From an uncultured Aeromicrobium sp. (lineage in GTDB: Bacteria > Actinomycetota > Actinomycetes > Propionibacteriales > Nocardioidaceae), in assembly GCA_937873005.1 (NCBI GenBank), contig CALMUY010000053.1:1-33258 (forward strand): a stretch of 33,258 bases of DNA, given 5' to 3'. Numbering within the stretch: position 1 is the stretch's first letter; each line of letters begins with the position of its first letter. Made by a program: the position numbers and the translations under genes. Below the pieces are notes generated by a model. The model did no database searches, was not told the DNA's origin, and saw nothing but the letters and a program-made list of their open reading frames with translations. Shown here one piece after another: positions 5,697 through 18,430 of this stretch.

Positions 5697-6719
5697 TCAG
5701 GTCAGCGCGAACCGCAAATGCGCGACCACAGGACCGTTCCAGTCTGGCTGATCAGATCCACGAACCGCGACCGCACGACCGCCTTTGGCTACCACTAGCG
5801 TGGCGATTTGTCCGAACAGTTCGCCCACACCTGGTGTGAACGCTCCCGAATCATCTGGTGCGTAACTGATCTCGCCCGTTTCCGGATTCAGCGTGCCCCA
5901 GACGTCTTGAGTCATATCGAACCACATGGCCTCAACCGAACCTTGTGCCGCAAGGTGAGCAATTGCGGCCAAATCGTGTTCGACTCGGCTCTGATCAATC
6001 TCACCCAAGTTCGCCAATTCGGCTGCGGTAATTGTGGTGTTGACCTCGGCCAACCGGCCACGAATTTCCTCATCGATTTCGGCAGCAGTGAGTCGATCGG
6101 CGGCTCCTCGCACGAGTTCAAGGTGGCGTCCCTCTTTCCGCACGTCAAAACGTCCCAACAGTTGTTCTTCAGCAAAAACGAACAACGGGATATTGCCAGC
6201 GGGGTTGATTGCAGCCAATTCCGTTTGAGCTGCATCGGCAACTCGTTTCGCGTACAAGTCGTAGGGGTCTCCGCTGAGGCGATCATCGCCCCGTCCGGCT
6301 GAGCCACGGTTCGTCGCGTCTGATGCGCTGTCCGGATAGTCGCCGGAAATGGCGAGTTCGGTCGCGCGAGCGGTCGGCGTGGCGTGCCAGAGCTTCCATT
6401 CGTTCGCCGACAGTGTGAGTGCAAAAGCTTCTTGGATTTGGGTGACGCTGCGCCACAACAAGCCGAGAGAGAATGTAGTTCCGGCATCGAAATGGTCTTC
6501 GATTCTGTTTGGCAACACGAACACTTCGCTGAACCCCGGTGCTACGAACACCGCAAGTGAACGCGACAGTTTGTGCCAAATATCGGAATCGAGAATTTCC
6601 TCGCGCGACTGAGCGATTTCGGTGCGCACCGGGTGGCTGATGCCCGCATCTTCCAGTTGATTGAGTGCATCATCAAAGGCGCTCTTAAACGCAACCTTTG
6701 CTCGGTCGGCGTCGGCCAC
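5697..6719 (-). CDS. baeRF-like protein (bacterial archaeo-eukaryotic release factor family), start disrupted
   Basis: The pattern matches the bacterial eRF1-like (baeRF) families, which are thought to act at stalled ribosomes. Visible points are an N-terminal helical part, a middle domain with ALTLSANEWKLWHATP, a segment RFDVRKEGRHLELVRGAADR, and a C-terminal domain with SVEAMWFDMTQDVWGTLNPETG. The annotated GTG at 6719 is too late: the frame continues upstream for 31 sense codons, including the expected strand IAVTVYVETAPN. It reaches an ATG at 6816-6818 with a good GAGGT ribosome site, but the very next codon is TAA (6813-6815). A run of ten G lies in this extension at 6789-6798. The natural start is therefore probably 6818 and codon 2 is mutated or misread. 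If the sequence is right, the protein lacks its first strand or uses a rare start. Downstream it converges on ecfT. Confidence 0.62.
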   Translation of the reverse strand: MADADRAKVAFKSAFDDALNQLEDAGISHPVRTEIAQSREEILDSDIWHKLSRSLAVFVAPGFSEVFVLPNRIEDHFDAGTTFSLGLLWRSVTQIQEAFALTLSANEWKLWHATPTARATELAISGDYPDSASDATNRGSAGRGDDRLSGDPYDLYAKRVADAAQTELAAINPAGNIPLFVFAEEQLLGRFDVRKEGRHLELVRGAADRLTAAEIDEEIRGRLAEVNTTITAAELANLGEIDQSRVEHDLAAIAHLAAQGSVEAMWFDMTQDVWGTLNPETGEISYAPDDSGAFTPGVGELFGQIATLVVAKGGRAVAVRGSDQPDWNGPVVAHLRFALT

Positions 6720-7046: not shown

Positions 7047-7562
7047 CTACGCGTCGGTGCTTTCGTCTGCTTCAGACGCATCTTCATGGACATCGTCGTC
7101 TGCGACCTGATCGACGCGATAGTGGTACACGACTTTCGTTGCGAGTGGGATATCGTGCAGCGACCGCGAACCAGGTGTAATTGCACAGGTGAAGAGGCCG
7201 ATCGGGAAGACAGTAACGAACCCGGCGCGCAATCCCGCGCGCACAAAATCGAGTTTGCCGCCCGAAACCGAGACGACGCGCGTACCCAAAAGCACCGAAC
7301 CGACGGTTTTACCTCGAGTCGCCCAACTGAACCACAAGTACAAGAACATCAACACGAAGCCACTGATTGCGAACCAACTCACATGGAACGACGGCCACGA
7401 GAAGCGACGAGGATCCGTAAGAAAACCCAAAACCGCGAAACCGACGTAGCCCAAGCCGATGGTCGACCAAATGAGTGCGTAATCAACCGCCCCCGCCATA
7501 GTTCGCGTCACCACGCCGGCGGGCTTACCTTGCAATTCGAGCATCGTGTGAGTTTTGGCCAT
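7047..7562 (-). CDS. RDD-family membrane protein
   Basis: This 171-residue protein has the RDD-domain outline: an N-terminal GVVTRTMAGAVDYALIW segment (Arg and Asp in the first helix), a second hydrophobic region around 65-85, the conserved linker WFSWATRGKTVGSVLLGTRVV, and a last helix around 105-125. The C-terminal tail is strongly acidic. Function of the family is poorly defined; some members are implicated in ion transport. The ATG at 7562 shares one base with the TGA of the upstream gene (TGATG), so the two are translationally coupled. Pairing of an RDD protein with a VD-repeat protein suggests a shared envelope role, but this is inference. Confidence 0.85.
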   Translation of the reverse strand: MAKTHTMLELQGKPAGVVTRTMAGAVDYALIWSTIGLGYVGFAVLGFLTDPRRFSWPSFHVSWFAISGFVLMFLYLWFSWATRGKTVGSVLLGTRVVSVSGGKLDFVRAGLRAGFVTVFPIGLFTCAITPGSRSLHDIPLATKVVYHYRVDQVADDDVHEDASEADESTDA

Positions 7563-8332
7563 CAGTCGTTTCTCCTGCCGCGGAAGAAGTTTGCGATAGC
7601 TTCGTCGGCAGATGCTGCCGACGCGCGGGTCCCGCGCACGACTTCTGTTGCGACACCGGACGTGGATTCACGGATGATGCCTGGCAAGTCGATTTCGTCG
7701 ATCACGTCATTCGTGATGCCAGCCAAATCGAGCCTCTCGACAACATCATTAGTCAACGCCATCAGATCGACATTCTCTTGAACAATCGCCGTCAAGTCTA
7801 CGTTGGCGAGCGCCGCAGTCATGACTGGTGGCAGGGCAAGTGCAATGAGTTTCTCGATCATCACTGGGTCAAGATGCTCTTCGGTCAAGGCCACCGGATC
7901 AATCTGGGCGAGCGTCGCCGAAATAAGTTCTGGCGTGAGAACTTGACCCACAACCTCAGCAACATCAACCTGCGAAATCAGCGCATCAACAGTGTCTTTT
8001 GTAACTGTCTTGCGCACTAACTCAGGAATGTCGAGCCGATCAACTGTGGCGGTGACCAAGATCGGCACGAGTGCGTCAAACAATTGAATGGAGCCATCGA
8101 GAACTACTGCCGTTTGCTGAAGGCGCGCACCGCGGCCGCGGTCTTCGAGGTTGTGCACAATCGTCGCCAACGCATGCCGCTCTGGAACTAACGGTGGTTT
8201 GCGCACAAGTCGCCACGTGATCACCGCAGGGATCGCGGCGACGGTTGCGATCCGTTTGGCGTGGGGAGCTGCCGTAAGCGCCGCGCCCAAAGCCAGATCG
8301 GCTGCGCGTTGCAGACTGTTCGCCGGTTCCAT
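7562..8332 (-). CDS. Conserved actinobacterial protein with VD-type tandem repeats
   Basis: No enzyme motif is recognised in these 256 residues. The N-terminus has a weak hydrophobic stretch (about residues 12-42) ending in a basic segment, possibly a membrane anchor. From about residue 85 to 220 the chain is a series of degenerate repeats with period about 12-15 of the form hydrophobic-Asp-(Leu/Val)-x-x-hydrophobic-hydrophobic, for example VDRLDIPELVRK, ISQVDVAEVVGQ, ANVDLTAIVQE, NVDLMALTND, RLDLAGITND and EIDLPGIIRE. Such repeats probably form a stacked helical solenoid. The C-terminus is basic (FFRGRRND). It is the first gene of a two-gene unit with the RDD protein (1-nt overlap). The ATG at 8332 is the only good start; upstream is a 58-nt gap. 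Confidence 0.7.
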   Translation of the reverse strand: MEPANSLQRAADLALGAALTAAPHAKRIATVAAIPAVITWRLVRKPPLVPERHALATIVHNLEDRGRGARLQQTAVVLDGSIQLFDALVPILVTATVDRLDIPELVRKTVTKDTVDALISQVDVAEVVGQVLTPELISATLAQIDPVALTEEHLDPVMIEKLIALALPPVMTAALANVDLTAIVQENVDLMALTNDVVERLDLAGITNDVIDEIDLPGIIRESTSGVATEVVRGTRASAASADEAIANFFRGRRND

Positions 8333-8390
8333 GAACTAAGAATGCACCCTGGCTCGTGGGGTTACTACCGGAGTCTCAAGAAACAACGAA

Positions 8391-9485
8391 TTAGGTGGTT
8401 CGTGAAGCATCTGAAGCAGCAAGACGAACGACTTCGAAACGGTCGAGTCCGATCGTGGCAGGAACGGTACAGTCGGCGCCCAAAACTAAACGGTCGCGAC
8501 CCGCCTCGGCGATCGTGGCGTGCGTGGCATCCACGACCTCGGCTGGCGTGCCCGACGCCAAAAGTGTGCCGACGTTGTTGTCAAAGCCGCCGATCACAAC
8601 GCCATCGAAAATCTCCTTGCCCGCAGCCAACGAGACGCCTTCGGTGTGAACAGCCCAGTTGTAGGCGCTCGCGGGGTAAGCGGCTTAGTACTCGAGGTCG
8701 TTTTGGTAGTGCTCATAGCCGCACACATGCAGGATGTTGTGCGGCCACAACTCGTTGATCCGATTCAAGACGCGAATATCTGACGGCTTAATCCATTCAT
8801 CGTGATGACTGCGGTCGCATTCAGCGCGTTGGGCCGATTGCACGGAATAGAACATGCCATCGATTCGAGTTTCAGCCTTGAGTGCTTCGAGCAGCACGAT
8901 GGTGTCGTCGGCAATGATGTCGGCCGCGCGTGCGACGGCTTCCTAATGTTCAAGCAGCATTGTTTGAAAACCGTCAACATCTTTGATGATGTATTCGATG
9001 AAAAGTCGGAACTGTTGAATCGGCGCGAAGACCGTGTAAAAGGCCATCACTTCGTTGTTGTAAAACTCAACAAGATTCTTGACCAGTTCGACCTGCTTGC
9101 GGATCCACGGATGGGAGGGCTCGATCCGCTTGATTGTAGAGAGGTCTTCGACCGAAGAGACTTTGTTGTCAACGATTGAGGGATGGCTGAAGAAACCATC
9201 AGACATGATCTTGACGAAGTCGGGCTTCAGCGCAGCGTAGTCGCGTTTGTGGCCAGCGAGGTTGTTCGCAAAAATCTTCGGACTGTCATAGCCCTTGAAC
9301 GGATTGTTCGGCAAGAGCTTCCAAATGACTTCGGGCGGGACCTTCGAGGGCCCTTTCATCTTGCTTTGGATGTACTGCAGGGGAGCAGGCACGGAATAGT
9401 AGTGCCACCAAAACCCGACGGGCACACGAGAAACGGGCTTGCCGTCAAGCAAGTCGAGCATGAGTTGTCGCCGGTCGTCGATCAT
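8391..9485 (-). pseudogene. Uroporphyrinogen-decarboxylase-family (URO-D/MtaA-like) gene interrupted by two in-frame stops
   Basis: From the ATG at 9485 to the TAA at 8391 one reading frame encodes a normal-length (about 364 codons) URO-D-fold protein. The N-terminus reads RRQLMLDLLDGKPVSRVPVG and the C-terminal part includes GKEIFDGVVIGGFDNN and RLVLGADCTVP. There is no frameshift, but codons at 8943-8945 (TAG, after MLLEH) and 8685-8687 (TAA, after NDLEY) are stops, giving three pieces. Conservation looks even across all three, including between the stops (HDEWIKPSDIRVLNRINELWPHN), so inactivation is very recent, an error, or recoded. Relatives act as heme-pathway decarboxylases or as methyl-transferases for corrinoid proteins; the exact role is unknown. 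A TAGACT box 8 nt before the ATG could be a -10 for a leaderless transcript. The gene is divergent from aqpZ. Confidence 0.75.
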
Positions 9486-9678
9486 GAGGGAGAGTCTAAG
9501 TGGTGGCCAGACCGGGGGAGCGGGATAAAGACGCGATGGCTGCGCTGCGCGGTCAGCAACTCCGTGAAAAATCACCAACGTATAGCGAAAGGTGACGAGA
9601 TCGCGGATTGAACCGACGTAGTGTGAACGAGCAACCGTCGCTCGGACGATTGCGTTCAGGTTTGAAAGGAACCGGATC

Positions 9679-10395
9679 ATGCCTACGCTCATTCAAAAGC
9701 TCGGTGCTGAATTTCTGGGCACCTTCGTACTCGTCTTTGGTGGTTGTGGTGCAGCTGTACTCGCTGCTGGTTTCATGTCGGGTGACACACACCTCGGCAT
9801 TGGATTCTTGGGAGTCGCACTCGCCTTCGGCTTGACCGTCGTCGTGATGGCCTACGCAGTCGGACACATCTCCGGAGGCCACTTCAACCCGGCCGTCACT
9901 TTGGGTTTGGCTACCGCAAAGCGCATCGATTGGCGCGACGTTTTCCCCTACATTGCAGTTCAGGTTGCTGGTGCTATTGCGGCTGCAGGCGTCTTGTATG
10001 TTGTGGCAAGCGGTCAAGCGGGGTTCTCGGCAGTTGAAAGCGGATTCGCAACAAACGGCTTCGGTGAACATTCGCCGGGAGGATATTCGCTCGCGGCTGC
10101 AATCGTTGTCGAGTTCGTGCTGACAGCGATCTTCCTTTTTGTCATTCTTGGGGTCACGGATGCGAAAGCTCCTGCTGGATTCGCGCCCCTCGCCATCGGT
10201 TTGAGCTTGACGCTTATCCACCTCGTCGCCATTCCGGTCACGAACACCTCGGTCAACCCCGCACGGTCGATTGGTCCGGCATTGTTCGTCGGTGGAGATG
10301 CGATCACCCAATTGTGGGTGTTCATTCTCGTGCCGATCGCAGGTGCGGTTGCCGCTGGAGTCATTCACAACGCGTTGTTCGCCACGAAAGACTGA
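9679..10395 (+). CDS. aqpZ: Aquaporin Z, water channel
   Basis: This 238-residue channel has six membrane helices and both half-helix motifs, HFNPAV (Asn70-Pro-Ala) and SVNPAR (Asn193-Pro-Ala-Arg196). The selectivity-filter residues expected for a water-specific channel are present: an aromatic in the helix-2 AFGLTV segment (Phe50), His181, Thr190 and Arg196. Small residues around the first NPA fit AqpZ rather than a glycerol facilitator. The start ATG at 9679 has a GAAAGGA ribosome site 8 nt upstream; the upstream frame in this direction is not conserved. It is a single gene with divergent and convergent neighbours and a strong terminator, so it is likely transcribed alone. Confidence 0.95.
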
Positions 10396-10500: not shown

Positions 10501-11025
10501 CTACGGCTCCATTGAAGCGAGCACGTCGTCGATCCATTTGACTGTCGCGCGTGCCGTGGTGATGCCGTATTCGACAGTCGCGAGCCGAAAAGAATCGACG
10601 CCGGAAGCGACCATCACTCGCTGTGCGGCCTTGTATTCACGAACCAGTGCGGCTTGATTCTGGCGCTGTTCGTTCAGAATTCCAGTGAGGACGTCGGGAT
10701 CGATATGGCGACCAAGCGATACGAAAAGCAGGAGCGGCAACCGGACAGTCGCCGCATCGGGGCCTTTCGCGACCCACTCGGCAAACGCTTGCCGCCCGGC
10801 GACGGTGATTTCATAAGGCCGCGCATCACGTTTTCCGCTCGTGCCTTCACAGGCGAACCCCAATTCAGCTAAGCGTCGGAGTTCGCGATGAACTTGGCTG
10901 CGCGAGATCGACCAGAATCCACCGAGTTGCGCCTGCACGGCCGCAGTCAGTTCCCAGCCTGACTGCGGCGCATCGTGCAGGAACCCGAGAAGGGATGCTG
11001 CTGTGGGGTTTAAGTCGCTACTCAT
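10501..11025 (-). CDS. PadR-family transcriptional regulator
   Basis: This 174-residue protein has an N-terminal winged helix (about residues 5-85: TAASLLGFLHDAPQSGWELTA, then SISRSQVHRELRRLAELGF as recognition helix and wing) and a C-terminal all-helical dimerisation domain of the Vir_act_alpha_C type. The start is the ATG at 11025, which overlaps the TGA of the upstream gene as ATGA; the longer open frame to 11172 is antisense-like sequence inside that gene. Overlap with the DinB-like gene means the two proteins are made together, so it probably controls its own operon, perhaps through the inverted repeat at 11912-11932. Its inducer is unknown; PadR proteins often sense small hydrophobic compounds. 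Confidence 0.85.
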   Translation of the reverse strand: MSSDLNPTAASLLGFLHDAPQSGWELTAAVQAQLGGFWSISRSQVHRELRRLAELGFACEGTSGKRDARPYEITVAGRQAFAEWVAKGPDAATVRLPLLLFVSLGRHIDPDVLTGILNEQRQNQAALVREYKAAQRVMVASGVDSFRLATVEYGITTARATVKWIDDVLASMEP

Positions 11026-11876
11026 GCACTCATAAAGATCTTCTGGAACTTGAAAGCCAACCAGGGTTTGTCGCCAGCGGCCATCGTATGACCGCCGATG
11101 ATTCCCTTCCACAGCGGTACGCGACGGAATCCAGTGAGGAGCCCATAACGGGGGTTCATGGTGATGATGCAATCGACTGGTTCACCGGCTGCTTCGGCGA
11201 CAGCTTTCCCGTCAGCGATACGCAATACGAAGGGGGTGGCTTCGTGGATGCGGATTTCGTACGAGGCCTTGAAACCGTCAGGCAGGTTCGGATTCACGAG
11301 GATTGGGAGCATTTGGCTCATCACCGTGGGAAACGCGGCGCGGGCTTCTTCGACCGTGAACTCGCCGTCGATCTTGAACGCACGCGCCATATCCCAGCCA
11401 TGCACGAGTGTTTCTGTAACCGACAGCGCCAACAAGGTTCCAACTGTGCGCGTTTGCTCAGGGCCGTACCAGGACGTGGGTACGGCCGCTTCGAGATCGG
11501 GGCTTGACGCGATGACCTTCTTGAGTGCTTCGTATGCCTGTTCGAGTCCTTCGGCGACATCTTCCATGGAGCGTTCGCCGCTCGCACTCAGCGCTTGGTC
11601 GTTGATGACGGCTAGATAGTCACGCATGTTGTTGTCCCACGAGACCTCTGGGAATCCGGCGTTGAGAGGTTCGCCAGAAATGGCTCCAGCGAAAGCGAAA
11701 AGCGCCCACATGAGGTGGGTGCCTGTTTCGGAAGCATTCCAGTTCAGACTCGGAACGGGGGCTTTTGGATCGCCGCCTGAGCGGGCGATAGCGATCGTGC
11801 GCTGCATCGCAGATTCGAGTGCGACGCGCAGTTCAGCGAGATCAGGAACAACGGGCATGGAAGTCGAATTGGTCAT
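11022..11876 (-). CDS. Maleylpyruvate-isomerase/DinB-like metal-binding protein with SCP2-like C-terminal domain
   Basis: This 284-residue protein is of the TIGR03083 type, common in actinomycetes. The N-terminal four-helix DinB-like domain (about 12-185) carries the expected metal triad His54 (in TGTHLMW) and Glu155/His159 (in TETLVHGWDMA), matching the ligands of mycothiol-dependent maleylpyruvate isomerase. The C-terminal 90 residues (FVLRIADGKAV to FKFQKIFMSA) resemble the SCP2/MDMPI C-terminal domain. Mycothiol-dependent chemistry is plausible in this phylum but not shown. The ATG at 11876 lies only 5 nt after a TAGATA -10 box, so the mRNA is probably leaderless. It is the first gene of an operon with the PadR regulator. 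Confidence 0.82.
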   Translation of the reverse strand: MTNSTSMPVVPDLAELRVALESAMQRTIAIARSGGDPKAPVPSLNWNASETGTHLMWALFAFAGAISGEPLNAGFPEVSWDNNMRDYLAVINDQALSASGERSMEDVAEGLEQAYEALKKVIASSPDLEAAVPTSWYGPEQTRTVGTLLALSVTETLVHGWDMARAFKIDGEFTVEEARAAFPTVMSQMLPILVNPNLPDGFKASYEIRIHEATPFVLRIADGKAVAEAAGEPVDCIITMNPRYGLLTGFRRVPLWKGIIGGHTMAAGDKPWLAFKFQKIFMSA

Positions 11877-13914: not shown

Positions 13915-14907
13915 TCACATCGTGTCAATGCGAGATTCCAGTCGGTCAAAACTGACTTCCATGCCGTCGACCATGCCGGTAGCGAGGATCTCGGCGCGAG
14001 TATCGGTGTCGGGATACGTGATGACGTATGTCAGCAGGGTTCCGCTTGAGCACGAGTTGAGCGTGAGTTCATTGAGTGTTTCGGGACTGGATTCGCCCTG
14101 TGGGTCGTCAGGCGTGCAGAAGCGTTCTGTTGACACGAGGCGGTGCGGAGTCTCGACTTCGATTACCTCTCCGACAAACCCGAAGGTCTCACCTGATTCG
14201 TCGTTTCGGAACGTGTACTTCACCGAGGTGCCTTCAGTTGCGCTCATCTCGCATTCGGGCATGCTCCAGCCGTCGGGACCTGTCTGCCATTGGCGGAGCA
14301 GTTCCGGTTCGGTATGCGCGCGCCAAACCGCATCGATCGGGCCACGAACAATGCGCGAAATTCGAGCCTGGTTGGTTCCGAGAAGTTGCAGTTCGGTGTC
14401 CCACACACCGACCAGTTCGGCAAGGTCGGCAAGCACTGCGTCGATTTGAGACATCGCTGAACGTAGGCCCTCTTCCATGCCCATACCGATGATTTTTTCG
14501 ATTTCTTCGACCGAATTGAAATGGGTAGTCGTGGTTACACGAGACCCTAATGCGGTCTCAGCGAACTCGAAAACCATTCGCATCTCTGGCATTGCGTCGT
14601 TCGGAGTGCCGTCCTCGAGCGCGAAACCATCGAGTACCTCGAATCGACTGGGTTCTGCTACGGCGGTCCATTTCCAGTAGCCGCGACTCGTGTCGCCGTT
14701 CGGGCCCGTCATGCAGTAGTTGCTGAGGCCACCGACGAATCCGTCGTGCCGGAAAAAGGTGGCCGGATACTCGACGGGCCCCCAAAACTGTTCGATTGAA
14801 CGCGGGTTGAGATAGGCATCCCAAAGGCGTTCGACAGGTGCCGTGAAATCCGCGACCACCGTCATAGTCAGTGATTCAATGTCGCTCGTAAAGCTTGTGA
14901 TTGGCAT
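13915..14907 (-). CDS. Double SRPBCC (AHSA1-like) domain protein
   Basis: Two AHSA1/START-like domains are fused in 330 residues. Domain 1 (about 10-155) has DFTAPVERLWDAYLNPRSIEQFWGP; domain 2 (about 170-325) has RIVRGPIDAVWRAHTEPELLRQWQTGPDGW. These are the typical first helix and ligand-cavity entry of the family. Such proteins bind hydrophobic ligands in a helix-grip fold; no catalytic residue is evident. The start is the ATG at 14907 with a GGAAGG ribosome site, 31 nt after the ArsR gene; the longer open frame to 15105 is a shadow inside that gene. ArsR-SRPBCC pairs are a recurrent operon type, where the regulator represses both. Most partners have one domain, so the fusion is less usual. 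Confidence 0.85.
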   Translation of the reverse strand: MPITSFTSDIESLTMTVVADFTAPVERLWDAYLNPRSIEQFWGPVEYPATFFRHDGFVGGLSNYCMTGPNGDTSRGYWKWTAVAEPSRFEVLDGFALEDGTPNDAMPEMRMVFEFAETALGSRVTTTTHFNSVEEIEKIIGMGMEEGLRSAMSQIDAVLADLAELVGVWDTELQLLGTNQARISRIVRGPIDAVWRAHTEPELLRQWQTGPDGWSMPECEMSATEGTSVKYTFRNDESGETFGFVGEVIEVETPHRLVSTERFCTPDDPQGESSPETLNELTLNSCSSGTLLTYVITYPDTDTRAEILATGMVDGMEVSFDRLESRIDTM

Positions 14908-17125: not shown

Positions 17126-18430
17126 TTAGTCAAGCCACACATTGACGCGAACGAGATTGTGGTCTGACGGATGTGGAGTTGCATAGTTGCTGCCACTGAA
17201 TTTAGCCATCGATTGCCAATGGCTCGCACCGAAGTTTGCGGGCGCGAAAATACCGTCGACGTGATCGCCGTACAGTGTGCCGATTCGAGGCGTCTTGTCC
17301 CAGCCGTTATAGGAGTTGTATCGCGCATTCTTGTAGGACGACGACCGCTGGTAGGTGTCTGTAATTCCATACCTGGCAAACTCAATGCGCGGCGCATCCG
17401 TCGCCCGACGGCGTTCCGATTGAAGCCCGCCGCAAAACCCACCCCGCCTGCCCGTATCCACGGGGAGCGCGAATGTGACGAGGTTGCGTGTTTCTGCCGC
17501 CCGCGCACGATCATTCGCAGCGGACTTGCCGCTCGAGACGTGGGCCGACACGAATGTGTACGTCTTGCCTGTCGGCTTGTAGCGGAGCGTTGCCCACGTG
17601 GCTGTGGCGTTGCCGCCCAAACGGAAATCTCCGGCTAGTGGTTGCTCCACTGGTACGCCGGCGCGGACTTTGCGTTCCCACGCGCCGGTGGACGGGTTCC
17701 ACTCCCAAAAGTAGTTGGCATTCTCATCCCAGTGAAAGACATCTTCAGTGGACCAGCCACTCGAGTCACCGTCAAATGTCAGAGTTTCCCAGTCGCCAAC
17801 ATTCTCGATAACTGTGTGCGTTTCGGGCTCGAACGAGTTCGTCCGGTAAAAGACCGCTTCGGTTCCACTCGAGGAGGCCAAAGCGAAACCGAGCGGCTCT
17901 AGTCGCGCTTCGAGCACGCCAATTCGGCGGGATCCTTCTTGGATGGTGACGATGTGTGAGGCGGATTCAGCGATTCGTTGGACGACGAGATTCTCGCGGC
18001 TTGCCGTCCACGCTGCGCAACCGGATGCCACACTGCAGATGTTGAACGTCGAAACTCCGATGGGCGCAGCGGTCGACTTGTTTGCGTGAGCCATCGTGCT
18101 GTGGCAATACCGAGGCGACCTGCTTGATCCGGACTTCTTCGCCACCTGGAAGCAATACATCGTGTTGGCTTTGAGCCCCGAAACTGTCCCGGCCGAACCC
18201 TTGACCACTTTGGATTTTGCTTTCTTCGAAGTCACTCCACTAAACGACGTCGAGTAGTAAATGCGGTATTTCGAAACGCCCTTCTTAGTGGCCCAATCAA
18301 GCGTGAGCGACGTCGGCGTGGAGGCAACAACCCAAGGGGTCCCGACTGGTGCCGCCTGTGCGGGGGCAGCCAGCGCGCCAAACAAGATCAGTGAGGAAGT
18401 CAATGTGACGAGAGCCCGAGTTATTCGCAT
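17126..18430 (-). CDS. Secreted FN3 + endonuclease/exonuclease/phosphatase (EEP) protein, catalytic GDFN motif disrupted
   Basis: A Sec signal peptide (cleavage near AQA-AP, residue 27) is followed by a fibronectin-III domain (about 28-115) and an EEP/DNase-I-like domain (about 120-434). EEP landmarks seen are Asn130 in STFNICS, Glu165 in VTIQEG, the His of FVSAHVSSG, DHVDGIFAP and the final SDHNLV (422-427). The expected GDFN motif is missing from the translated frame, which reads VDTGRRGGFCGGLQSERRRATDAPR there. In the neighbouring frame the same bases (17404-17448) read GGVGFAAGFNRNAVG, close to the motif but without the Asp. Two compensating small indels would explain this. If real, the enzyme is probably inactive; otherwise it is a consensus error. 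The substrate (nucleic acid or a phosphoester) is unknown. Confidence 0.78.
   Translation of the reverse strand: MRITRALVTLTSSLILFGALAAPAQAAPVGTPWVVASTPTSLTLDWATKKGVSKYRIYYSTSFSGVTSKKAKSKVVKGSAGTVSGLKANTMYCFQVAKKSGSSRSPRYCHSTMAHANKSTAAPIGVSTFNICSVASGCAAWTASRENLVVQRIAESASHIVTIQEGSRRIGVLEARLEPLGFALASSSGTEAVFYRTNSFEPETHTVIENVGDWETLTFDGDSSGWSTEDVFHWDENANYFWEWNPSTGAWERKVRAGVPVEQPLAGDFRLGGNATATWATLRYKPTGKTYTFVSAHVSSGKSAANDRARAAETRNLVTFALPVDTGRRGGFCGGLQSERRRATDAPRIEFARYGITDTYQRSSSYKNARYNSYNGWDKTPRIGTLYGDHVDGIFAPANFGASHWQSMAKFSGSNYATPHPSDHNLVRVNVWLD

What the first reader, a model, noticed from the sequence alone, without database searches (positions are those of the whole stretch)
8391..9485. Full-length URO-D-family gene with two in-frame stops and no frameshift
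The frame is continuous for 364 codons, with family-like sequence before, between and after a TAG (8943-8945) and a TAA (8685-8687). A decaying gene would usually also show indels. Recent nonsense mutations are the simplest reading; consensus errors or stop-codon readthrough are alternatives. Two different stop codons argue against a single suppressor tRNA. The residue before the TAA (NDLEY) suggests a Tyr or similar codon was lost.
Basis: partly seen in the sequence, partly recalled or inferred. Interest (0 to 1): 0.6.

Follow-up and report, generated by a model that had tools for sequence, protein, structure and literature searches.

The report
Recently broken borrowed methyltransferase-like gene
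An Aeromicrobium bacterium carries an acquired enzyme gene that was switched off by two recent stop mutations; this is ordinary gene decay and not a case of ribosomes reading through stop codons.

Summary
On the minus strand (9485 to 8391) there is one full-length frame of 364 codons of the URO-D family, with TAG at codon 181 and TAA at codon 267, and no frameshift. The best reading is a young nonsense pseudogene of a horizontally acquired gene. Among 49 Aeromicrobium genomes only the window's and G001 carry it. The G001 copy has the same TAA, lacks the TAG, and has lost the ATG start. The shared TAA is not independent evidence: G001 is a sharp mosaic, and its piece with the TAA is nearly identical to the window. 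Codons 1-237, which differ by 6%, evolved under purifying selection, so inactivation is recent. Codon 267 is Tyr/Phe in 25 of 25 relatives; codon 181 is variable. Truncation removes a conserved His-x-Cys...Cys set. One coincidence was followed up: the only tRNA-Tyr-like gene in this genome has anticodon TTA, which could read both stops. It carries 7 substitutions and misfolds, and G001 has the TAA with a normal tRNA-Tyr, so suppression is not supported. No reads could be examined; a consensus error at the TAG remains possible. Interest is low.

The parts
8391..9485 (-). URO-D/MtaA-like gene, 364 codons plus terminal TAA, broken by two in-frame stops
9483..9485 (-). likely start codon ATG (codon 1); no Shine-Dalgarno-like sequence directly upstream by eye; the G001 copy reads CTG here after a 1-base deletion just upstream
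8943..8945 (-). in-frame TAG, codon 181, only in the window copy; variable position in the family (Lys, Arg, Pro, Ala and others)
8685..8687 (-). in-frame TAA, codon 267, also in the G001 copy; Tyr or Phe in 25 of 25 relatives
8050..8774 (.). tract nearly identical to G001 (4 mismatches over 8050-8749) that carries the shared TAA; G001 switches here from G017-like to window-like sequence
7562..8332 (-). downstream neighbour, 256-aa protein without Pfam match, conserved in G001 and G017
9679..10395 (+). divergent upstream neighbour, aquaporin Z

Best explanation
The locus is a young pseudogene. A small-genome Aeromicrobium lineage acquired a solitary URO-D-fold, MtaA-like gene. It was maintained under purifying selection in at least two lineages and then inactivated recently. 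In the window lineage, nonsense mutations arose at codons 267 (TAA) and 181 (TAG). The G001 copy carries the same TAA on a window-type segment (by recombination between sister lineages, or by mixed assembly) and has its own start-codon loss. Translation would end after 180 residues, before the conserved H253, C255 and C339, leaving half a barrel without the presumed zinc site. Shown: frame, stops, distribution, mosaic, selection signature. Inferred: the order of the mutations, absence of product, and zinc binding (motif recalled from MtaA).
For: Frame and stops. 25 of 25 non-Aeromicrobium relatives are uninterrupted; three Megasphaera rows only ran past their own terminal stop. Present in 2 of 49 genus genomes. 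45 of 46 invariant positions kept. Codons 1-237 against G001: 43 differences, codon positions 12/2/29, dN/dS 0.18; 24 synonymous codons against 8-11 expected under neutrality, 0 of 2000 simulations at each of four kappa values. No ATG/GTG/TTG at the start of the G001 copy. The G001 segment with the TAA is window-type. 7 TAA and 6 TAG among the stops of 25 window genes chosen by me, so both are ordinary terminators here.
Against: The gene still looks conserved, including beyond both stops, as a translated gene would. The TAG is in a single assembly, so it may be a consensus error. Two nonsense lesions are less typical than one (32 of 378 Salmonella pseudogenes have more than one lesion). No reads, transcripts or peptides could be examined.
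Confidence: 0.83

Rival explanations
1. One or both stops are consensus or assembly errors in a fragmented, mosaic MAG, and the real gene is intact.
For: The assembly has 250 contigs and abrupt identity switches against G001. The TAG is seen in one assembly only. Assembly errors create internal stops in public genomes (PMC11017572, abstract and passages). The genome's only tRNA-Tyr-like gene is implausibly degenerate.
Against: None of the 16 other window genes compared in frame shows an internal stop in the window. The other 37 tRNA hits were all called by ARAGORN, and their bit scores largely match G001. The TAA stands in two assemblies. The G001 copy has another lesion at its start.
Confidence: 0.12
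2. The stops are read through by an ochre-suppressor tRNA-Tyr (anticodon UUA), giving a full-length enzyme.
For: The only tRNA-Tyr-like gene found in the assembly has anticodon TTA, which by wobble would read UAA and UAG (recalled), and codon 267 is Tyr or Phe in 25 of 25 relatives.
Against: That tRNA has 7 substitutions relative to G001, scores 29.5 bits against 54.3, is not called by ARAGORN and does not fold as a cloverleaf. As the only tRNA-Tyr it could not read Tyr codons, so a normal copy must be missing from the assembly. G001 has the TAA but a normal GTA tRNA-Tyr. TAA and TAG end 13 of 25 window genes.
Confidence: 0.02
3. Constitutive low-level readthrough or programmed recoding keeps a small amount of full-length enzyme under selection.
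For: Purifying selection in codons 1-237 and conservation of 45 of 46 invariant residues.
Against: The shared TAA lies in a segment with no synonymous divergence, so no selection after the TAA can be shown; two successive stops would multiply the loss; no other relative has a stop at either position.
Confidence: 0.03

Closest known systems
Nonsense pseudogenes in bacteria, including failed horizontal transfers (PMC2916853 abstract and section 7; PMC522871 passages)
   Same: Patchily distributed acquired gene, point lesions, remainder of the frame intact, and in the sister copy a start-codon change; premature stops and start-codon changes are both recorded there.
   Different: Two stops rather than one, and one of them is shared between two assemblies through a mosaic segment.
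URO-D superfamily: HemE and MtaA/MtbA/CmuA methyltransferases (Pfam PF01208)
   Same: Pfam hit above cut-off. The model read through the stops matches PDB URO-D (2eja, 1j93) and the M. mazei methyltransferase (4ay8, 4ay7) with E 9e-12 to 3e-10 and TM 0.64-0.69. H253, C255 and C339 are invariant.
   Different: About 14% identity to those structures; far below the NCBIfam cut-off for MtbA (21.2 of 600 bits); no corrinoid protein gene recognised next to it; 27-residue insert (32-58) shared, among the relatives examined, only with G001 and L005.
Type 1 mlp gene clusters (PMC10418091, abstract and passages)
   Same: Bacterial homologues of soluble coenzyme M methyltransferases; some distant relatives here lie near amino-acid transport genes.
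   Different: The window gene is solitary; membership was not tested.

Membership tests
Bacterial pseudogene | homologous to an intact gene in relatives | tested here: met
   25 of 25 other relatives intact; L005 at 66% identity
Bacterial pseudogene | disabling lesion removing a large part of the product | tested here: met
   TAG leaves 180 of 364 codons, TAA 266 of 364
Bacterial pseudogene | loss of constraint after the lesion | tested here: inconclusive
   5' part constrained (dN/dS 0.18); the part with the shared TAA has 1 difference only
Bacterial pseudogene | lesions present in reads and no functional product | not testable with these tools
   no reads, transcripts or peptides
URO-D superfamily (PF01208) | Pfam score above the curated cut-off | tested here: met
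   37.2 against 23.9 bits
URO-D superfamily (PF01208) | URO-D fold | tested here: met
   model pLDDT 88.7, best PDB match URO-D 2eja E 8.7e-12; model made with Lys and Tyr at the stops
MtaA/MtbA coenzyme M methyltransferase | NCBIfam score above cut-off | tested here: not met
   MtbA 21.2 of 600 bits, PRK06252 18.8 of 244
MtaA/MtbA coenzyme M methyltransferase | His-x-Cys...Cys zinc ligands (motif recalled) | tested here: met
   H253, C255, C339 present and invariant in the alignment
Stop-codon suppression by tRNA | functional tRNA with anticodon CUA or UUA | tested here: not met
   37 of 38 tRNA hits are sense; the one TTA gene is degenerate and misfolds

The most novel reading that the evidence does not exclude
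The lineage carries a tRNA-Tyr-derived ochre suppressor (anticodon UUA) that reads both UAA and UAG, and the URO-D-like gene is a natural double-stop gene decoded by it, with Tyr at the position where the family has Tyr or Phe.
Probability: 0.02. Interest if true: 0.75.

Novelty: new member of a known kind. Interest (0 to 1): 0.12.

Why it matters
It matters mainly as a caution. An apparently conserved internal stop in two species was traced to a mosaic segment, and a tempting suppressor tRNA in the same assembly turned out to be a degenerate gene. If the suppressor reading were true, it would be a natural tRNA-Tyr ochre suppressor in a free-living actinobacterium, which would be surprising.

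Tried and rejected
Suppressor tRNA: followed up and rejected. The halves of tRNA-Tyr were sought in G000 with up to 3 mismatches to find a second copy: the 3' half gave only the degenerate copy, the 5' half nothing.

Code reassignment: rejected, since TAA and TAG end 13 of 25 window genes. The 25 gene frames were my own choice.

Pyrrolysine: not searched. The family carries no such residue to my knowledge (recalled), and it would not explain a TAA.

Overlapping gene on the plus strand instead of this frame: the plus-strand ORFs here were not searched against family libraries. The minus-strand reading is the one with homologues.

Conserved TAA as proof of readthrough: rejected after the mosaic was found.

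Rows: the row 13915-14900 was cut out of frame, and its stops and dN/dS are meaningless; it was dropped, leaving 16 other genes besides the three rows of the gene itself. The PadR row (10501-11100) is in frame but begins inside the ORF; its two listed stops are in G001 only and lie ahead of a likely later start; not followed up. The single G001 stop listed for 17126-18430 comes from gaps in my mapping; tblastn gave one continuous frame.

No viral contig holds a relative. phmmer of the L005 protein found no PDB sequence at E <= 1e-5. The PF01208 search of the own genome returned nothing, although the protein query found this gene, so that family search is not sensitive here.

Full report
What is there. 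The window lies in a 250-contig, 2.17 Mb assembly. Its sister G001 carries a 21,422-base contig that matches the record titled Aeromicrobium sp. isolate Bin_31_2 in length and in this gene. On the minus strand, 9485 to 8391, there is a 364-codon frame with TAG at codon 181 and TAA at codon 267. Read with X at the stops it is a URO-D family protein (37.2 bits, cut-off 23.9). The nearest intact relative is a Solirubrobacterales MAG gene at 66% identity.

Which residues stand at the stops. I aligned the window and the 26 loci. One of the 26, L004, is the G001 copy. The other 25 are all uninterrupted; three Megasphaera rows showed a stop only because the match ran past their own end. Several of the 25 are near duplicates, so they are not independent. 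Codon 267 is Tyr or Phe in 25 of 25. Codon 181 is variable; G001 has Lys there. Of 46 positions invariant in the 25, the window keeps 45; 28 of the 46 lie after codon 181. H253, C255 and C339 are among them; I recall His-x-Cys...Cys as the zinc site of MtaA-type methyltransferases. A product ending at codon 180 would lack all three. The structure model, made with Lys and Tyr at the stops, has pLDDT 88.7 and matches PDB URO-D and the M. mazei methyltransferase.

Distribution. The gene occurs in 2 of 49 Aeromicrobium genomes. In an even draw of 394 genomes of the class, 2 matched at E <= 1e-40: the window's own and G040, at 36% identity. The pattern fits horizontal acquisition. G017, close to G001 over the downstream neighbours, has no copy; its homology to the window ends at 8348, and beyond that it has transposase-like and phosphoesterase-like ORFs (those two names are my reading of the translations).

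How old are the lesions. Against G001 the gene has 44 base differences and no gap. Codons 1-237 differ at 43 bases with codon positions 12/2/29, and dN/dS is 0.18. Under neutral simulation 8-11 synonymous codons were expected against 24 seen, and none of 2000 runs reached this for any of four kappa values. So most of this divergence accumulated while the gene was working. Codons 238-364 differ at one base. That part belongs to a tract, about 8050-8774, that is nearly identical in the two genomes inside an 89% background. G001 differs from G017 by about 0.8% over G001:C94 895-3194 and by about 22% directly after, exactly where it becomes window-like. The TAA in G001 therefore sits on window-type DNA, by recombination or by mixed assembly, and does not show a long-lived stop. 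G001 has in addition lost the ATG: it reads CTG there after a one-base deletion, with no in-frame ATG, GTG or TTG upstream before a stop. No Shine-Dalgarno-like sequence is seen by eye upstream in the window, and no sigma-70-like promoter was found in 8200-9800.

Suppressor lead. An RNA-family search of the own genome gave 38 tRNA hits. ARAGORN names 37 of them, none with a stop anticodon. The 38th, G000:C185:308-389, is tRNA-Tyr-like with anticodon TTA. A pattern for the tRNA-Tyr anticodon arm matched 51 places in 49 genus genomes; 50 read GTA and only the window's genome reads TTA. Such an anticodon would read both UAA and UAG (recalled), and the residue it would insert fits codon 267, so this was tested with care. 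The gene has 7 substitutions in 82 bases relative to G001, scores 29.5 bits against 54.3 in G001 and 54.1 in G017, is not found by ARAGORN and does not fold as a cloverleaf, while the G001 and G017 copies do. It lies 14 bases from the point where alignment to G001 begins, near a contig end. As the only tRNA-Tyr it could not serve the cell, so the normal gene must be missing from the assembly. G001 has the TAA with a normal tRNA-Tyr. I conclude that this is a degenerate tRNA copy or a faulty stretch of assembly.

Against my reading. The assembly is fragmentary and mosaic, the TAG is in one assembly only, and assembly errors are a known source of internal stops (PMC11017572, abstract and passages). 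None of this could be settled without reads.

Literature seen. PMC2916853: abstract and section 7: 346 of 378 Salmonella pseudogenes have one lesion; 131 of those 346 are premature stops and two are start-codon changes. PMC522871: passages: pseudogenes are enriched for horizontally acquired genes. PMC10418091: abstract and passages. Other papers were seen in search listings only.

Verdict. This is an ordinary young pseudogene of an acquired URO-D/MtaA-like gene, probability about 0.83.

Noticed in passing
G000:C185:308-389 (L111): Only tRNA-Tyr-like gene of the window's genome; anticodon TTA, 7 substitutions relative to G001, beside a stretch (C185 1-293; C202 from about 31489 to its end) that does not align to G001 and could be an integrated element or faulty contig ends.
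   Followed up: partly
window 1-26246 against G001:C94: Fine-scale mosaic: ten runs of 150 or more identical bases (up to 584) in the main 20.7 kb alignment at 89% identity, plus one more in 1-544. One tract in the ribosome-hibernation-factor-like gene (5697-6719) is nearly identical in G000, G001 and G017.
   Followed up: partly
G000 whole genome: A PF01208 search of the own genome found no hit at E <= 0.001, so no hemE was detected; but the same search also missed the gene studied here, so this is weak.
   Followed up: no
G001:C74:26355-26444: A tRNA of the sister genome scores only 35.8 bits; possibly a second degraded tRNA in this group of MAGs.
   Followed up: no
L009, L007, L025 downstream of the URO-D-like genes: Relatives in Streptococcus, Trichococcus and a gamma-proteobacterium MAG lie next to family-3 solute-binding proteins, in the first two with further ABC transporter permease genes, hinting at a methylated amino-acid or sulfur substrate.
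   Followed up: no
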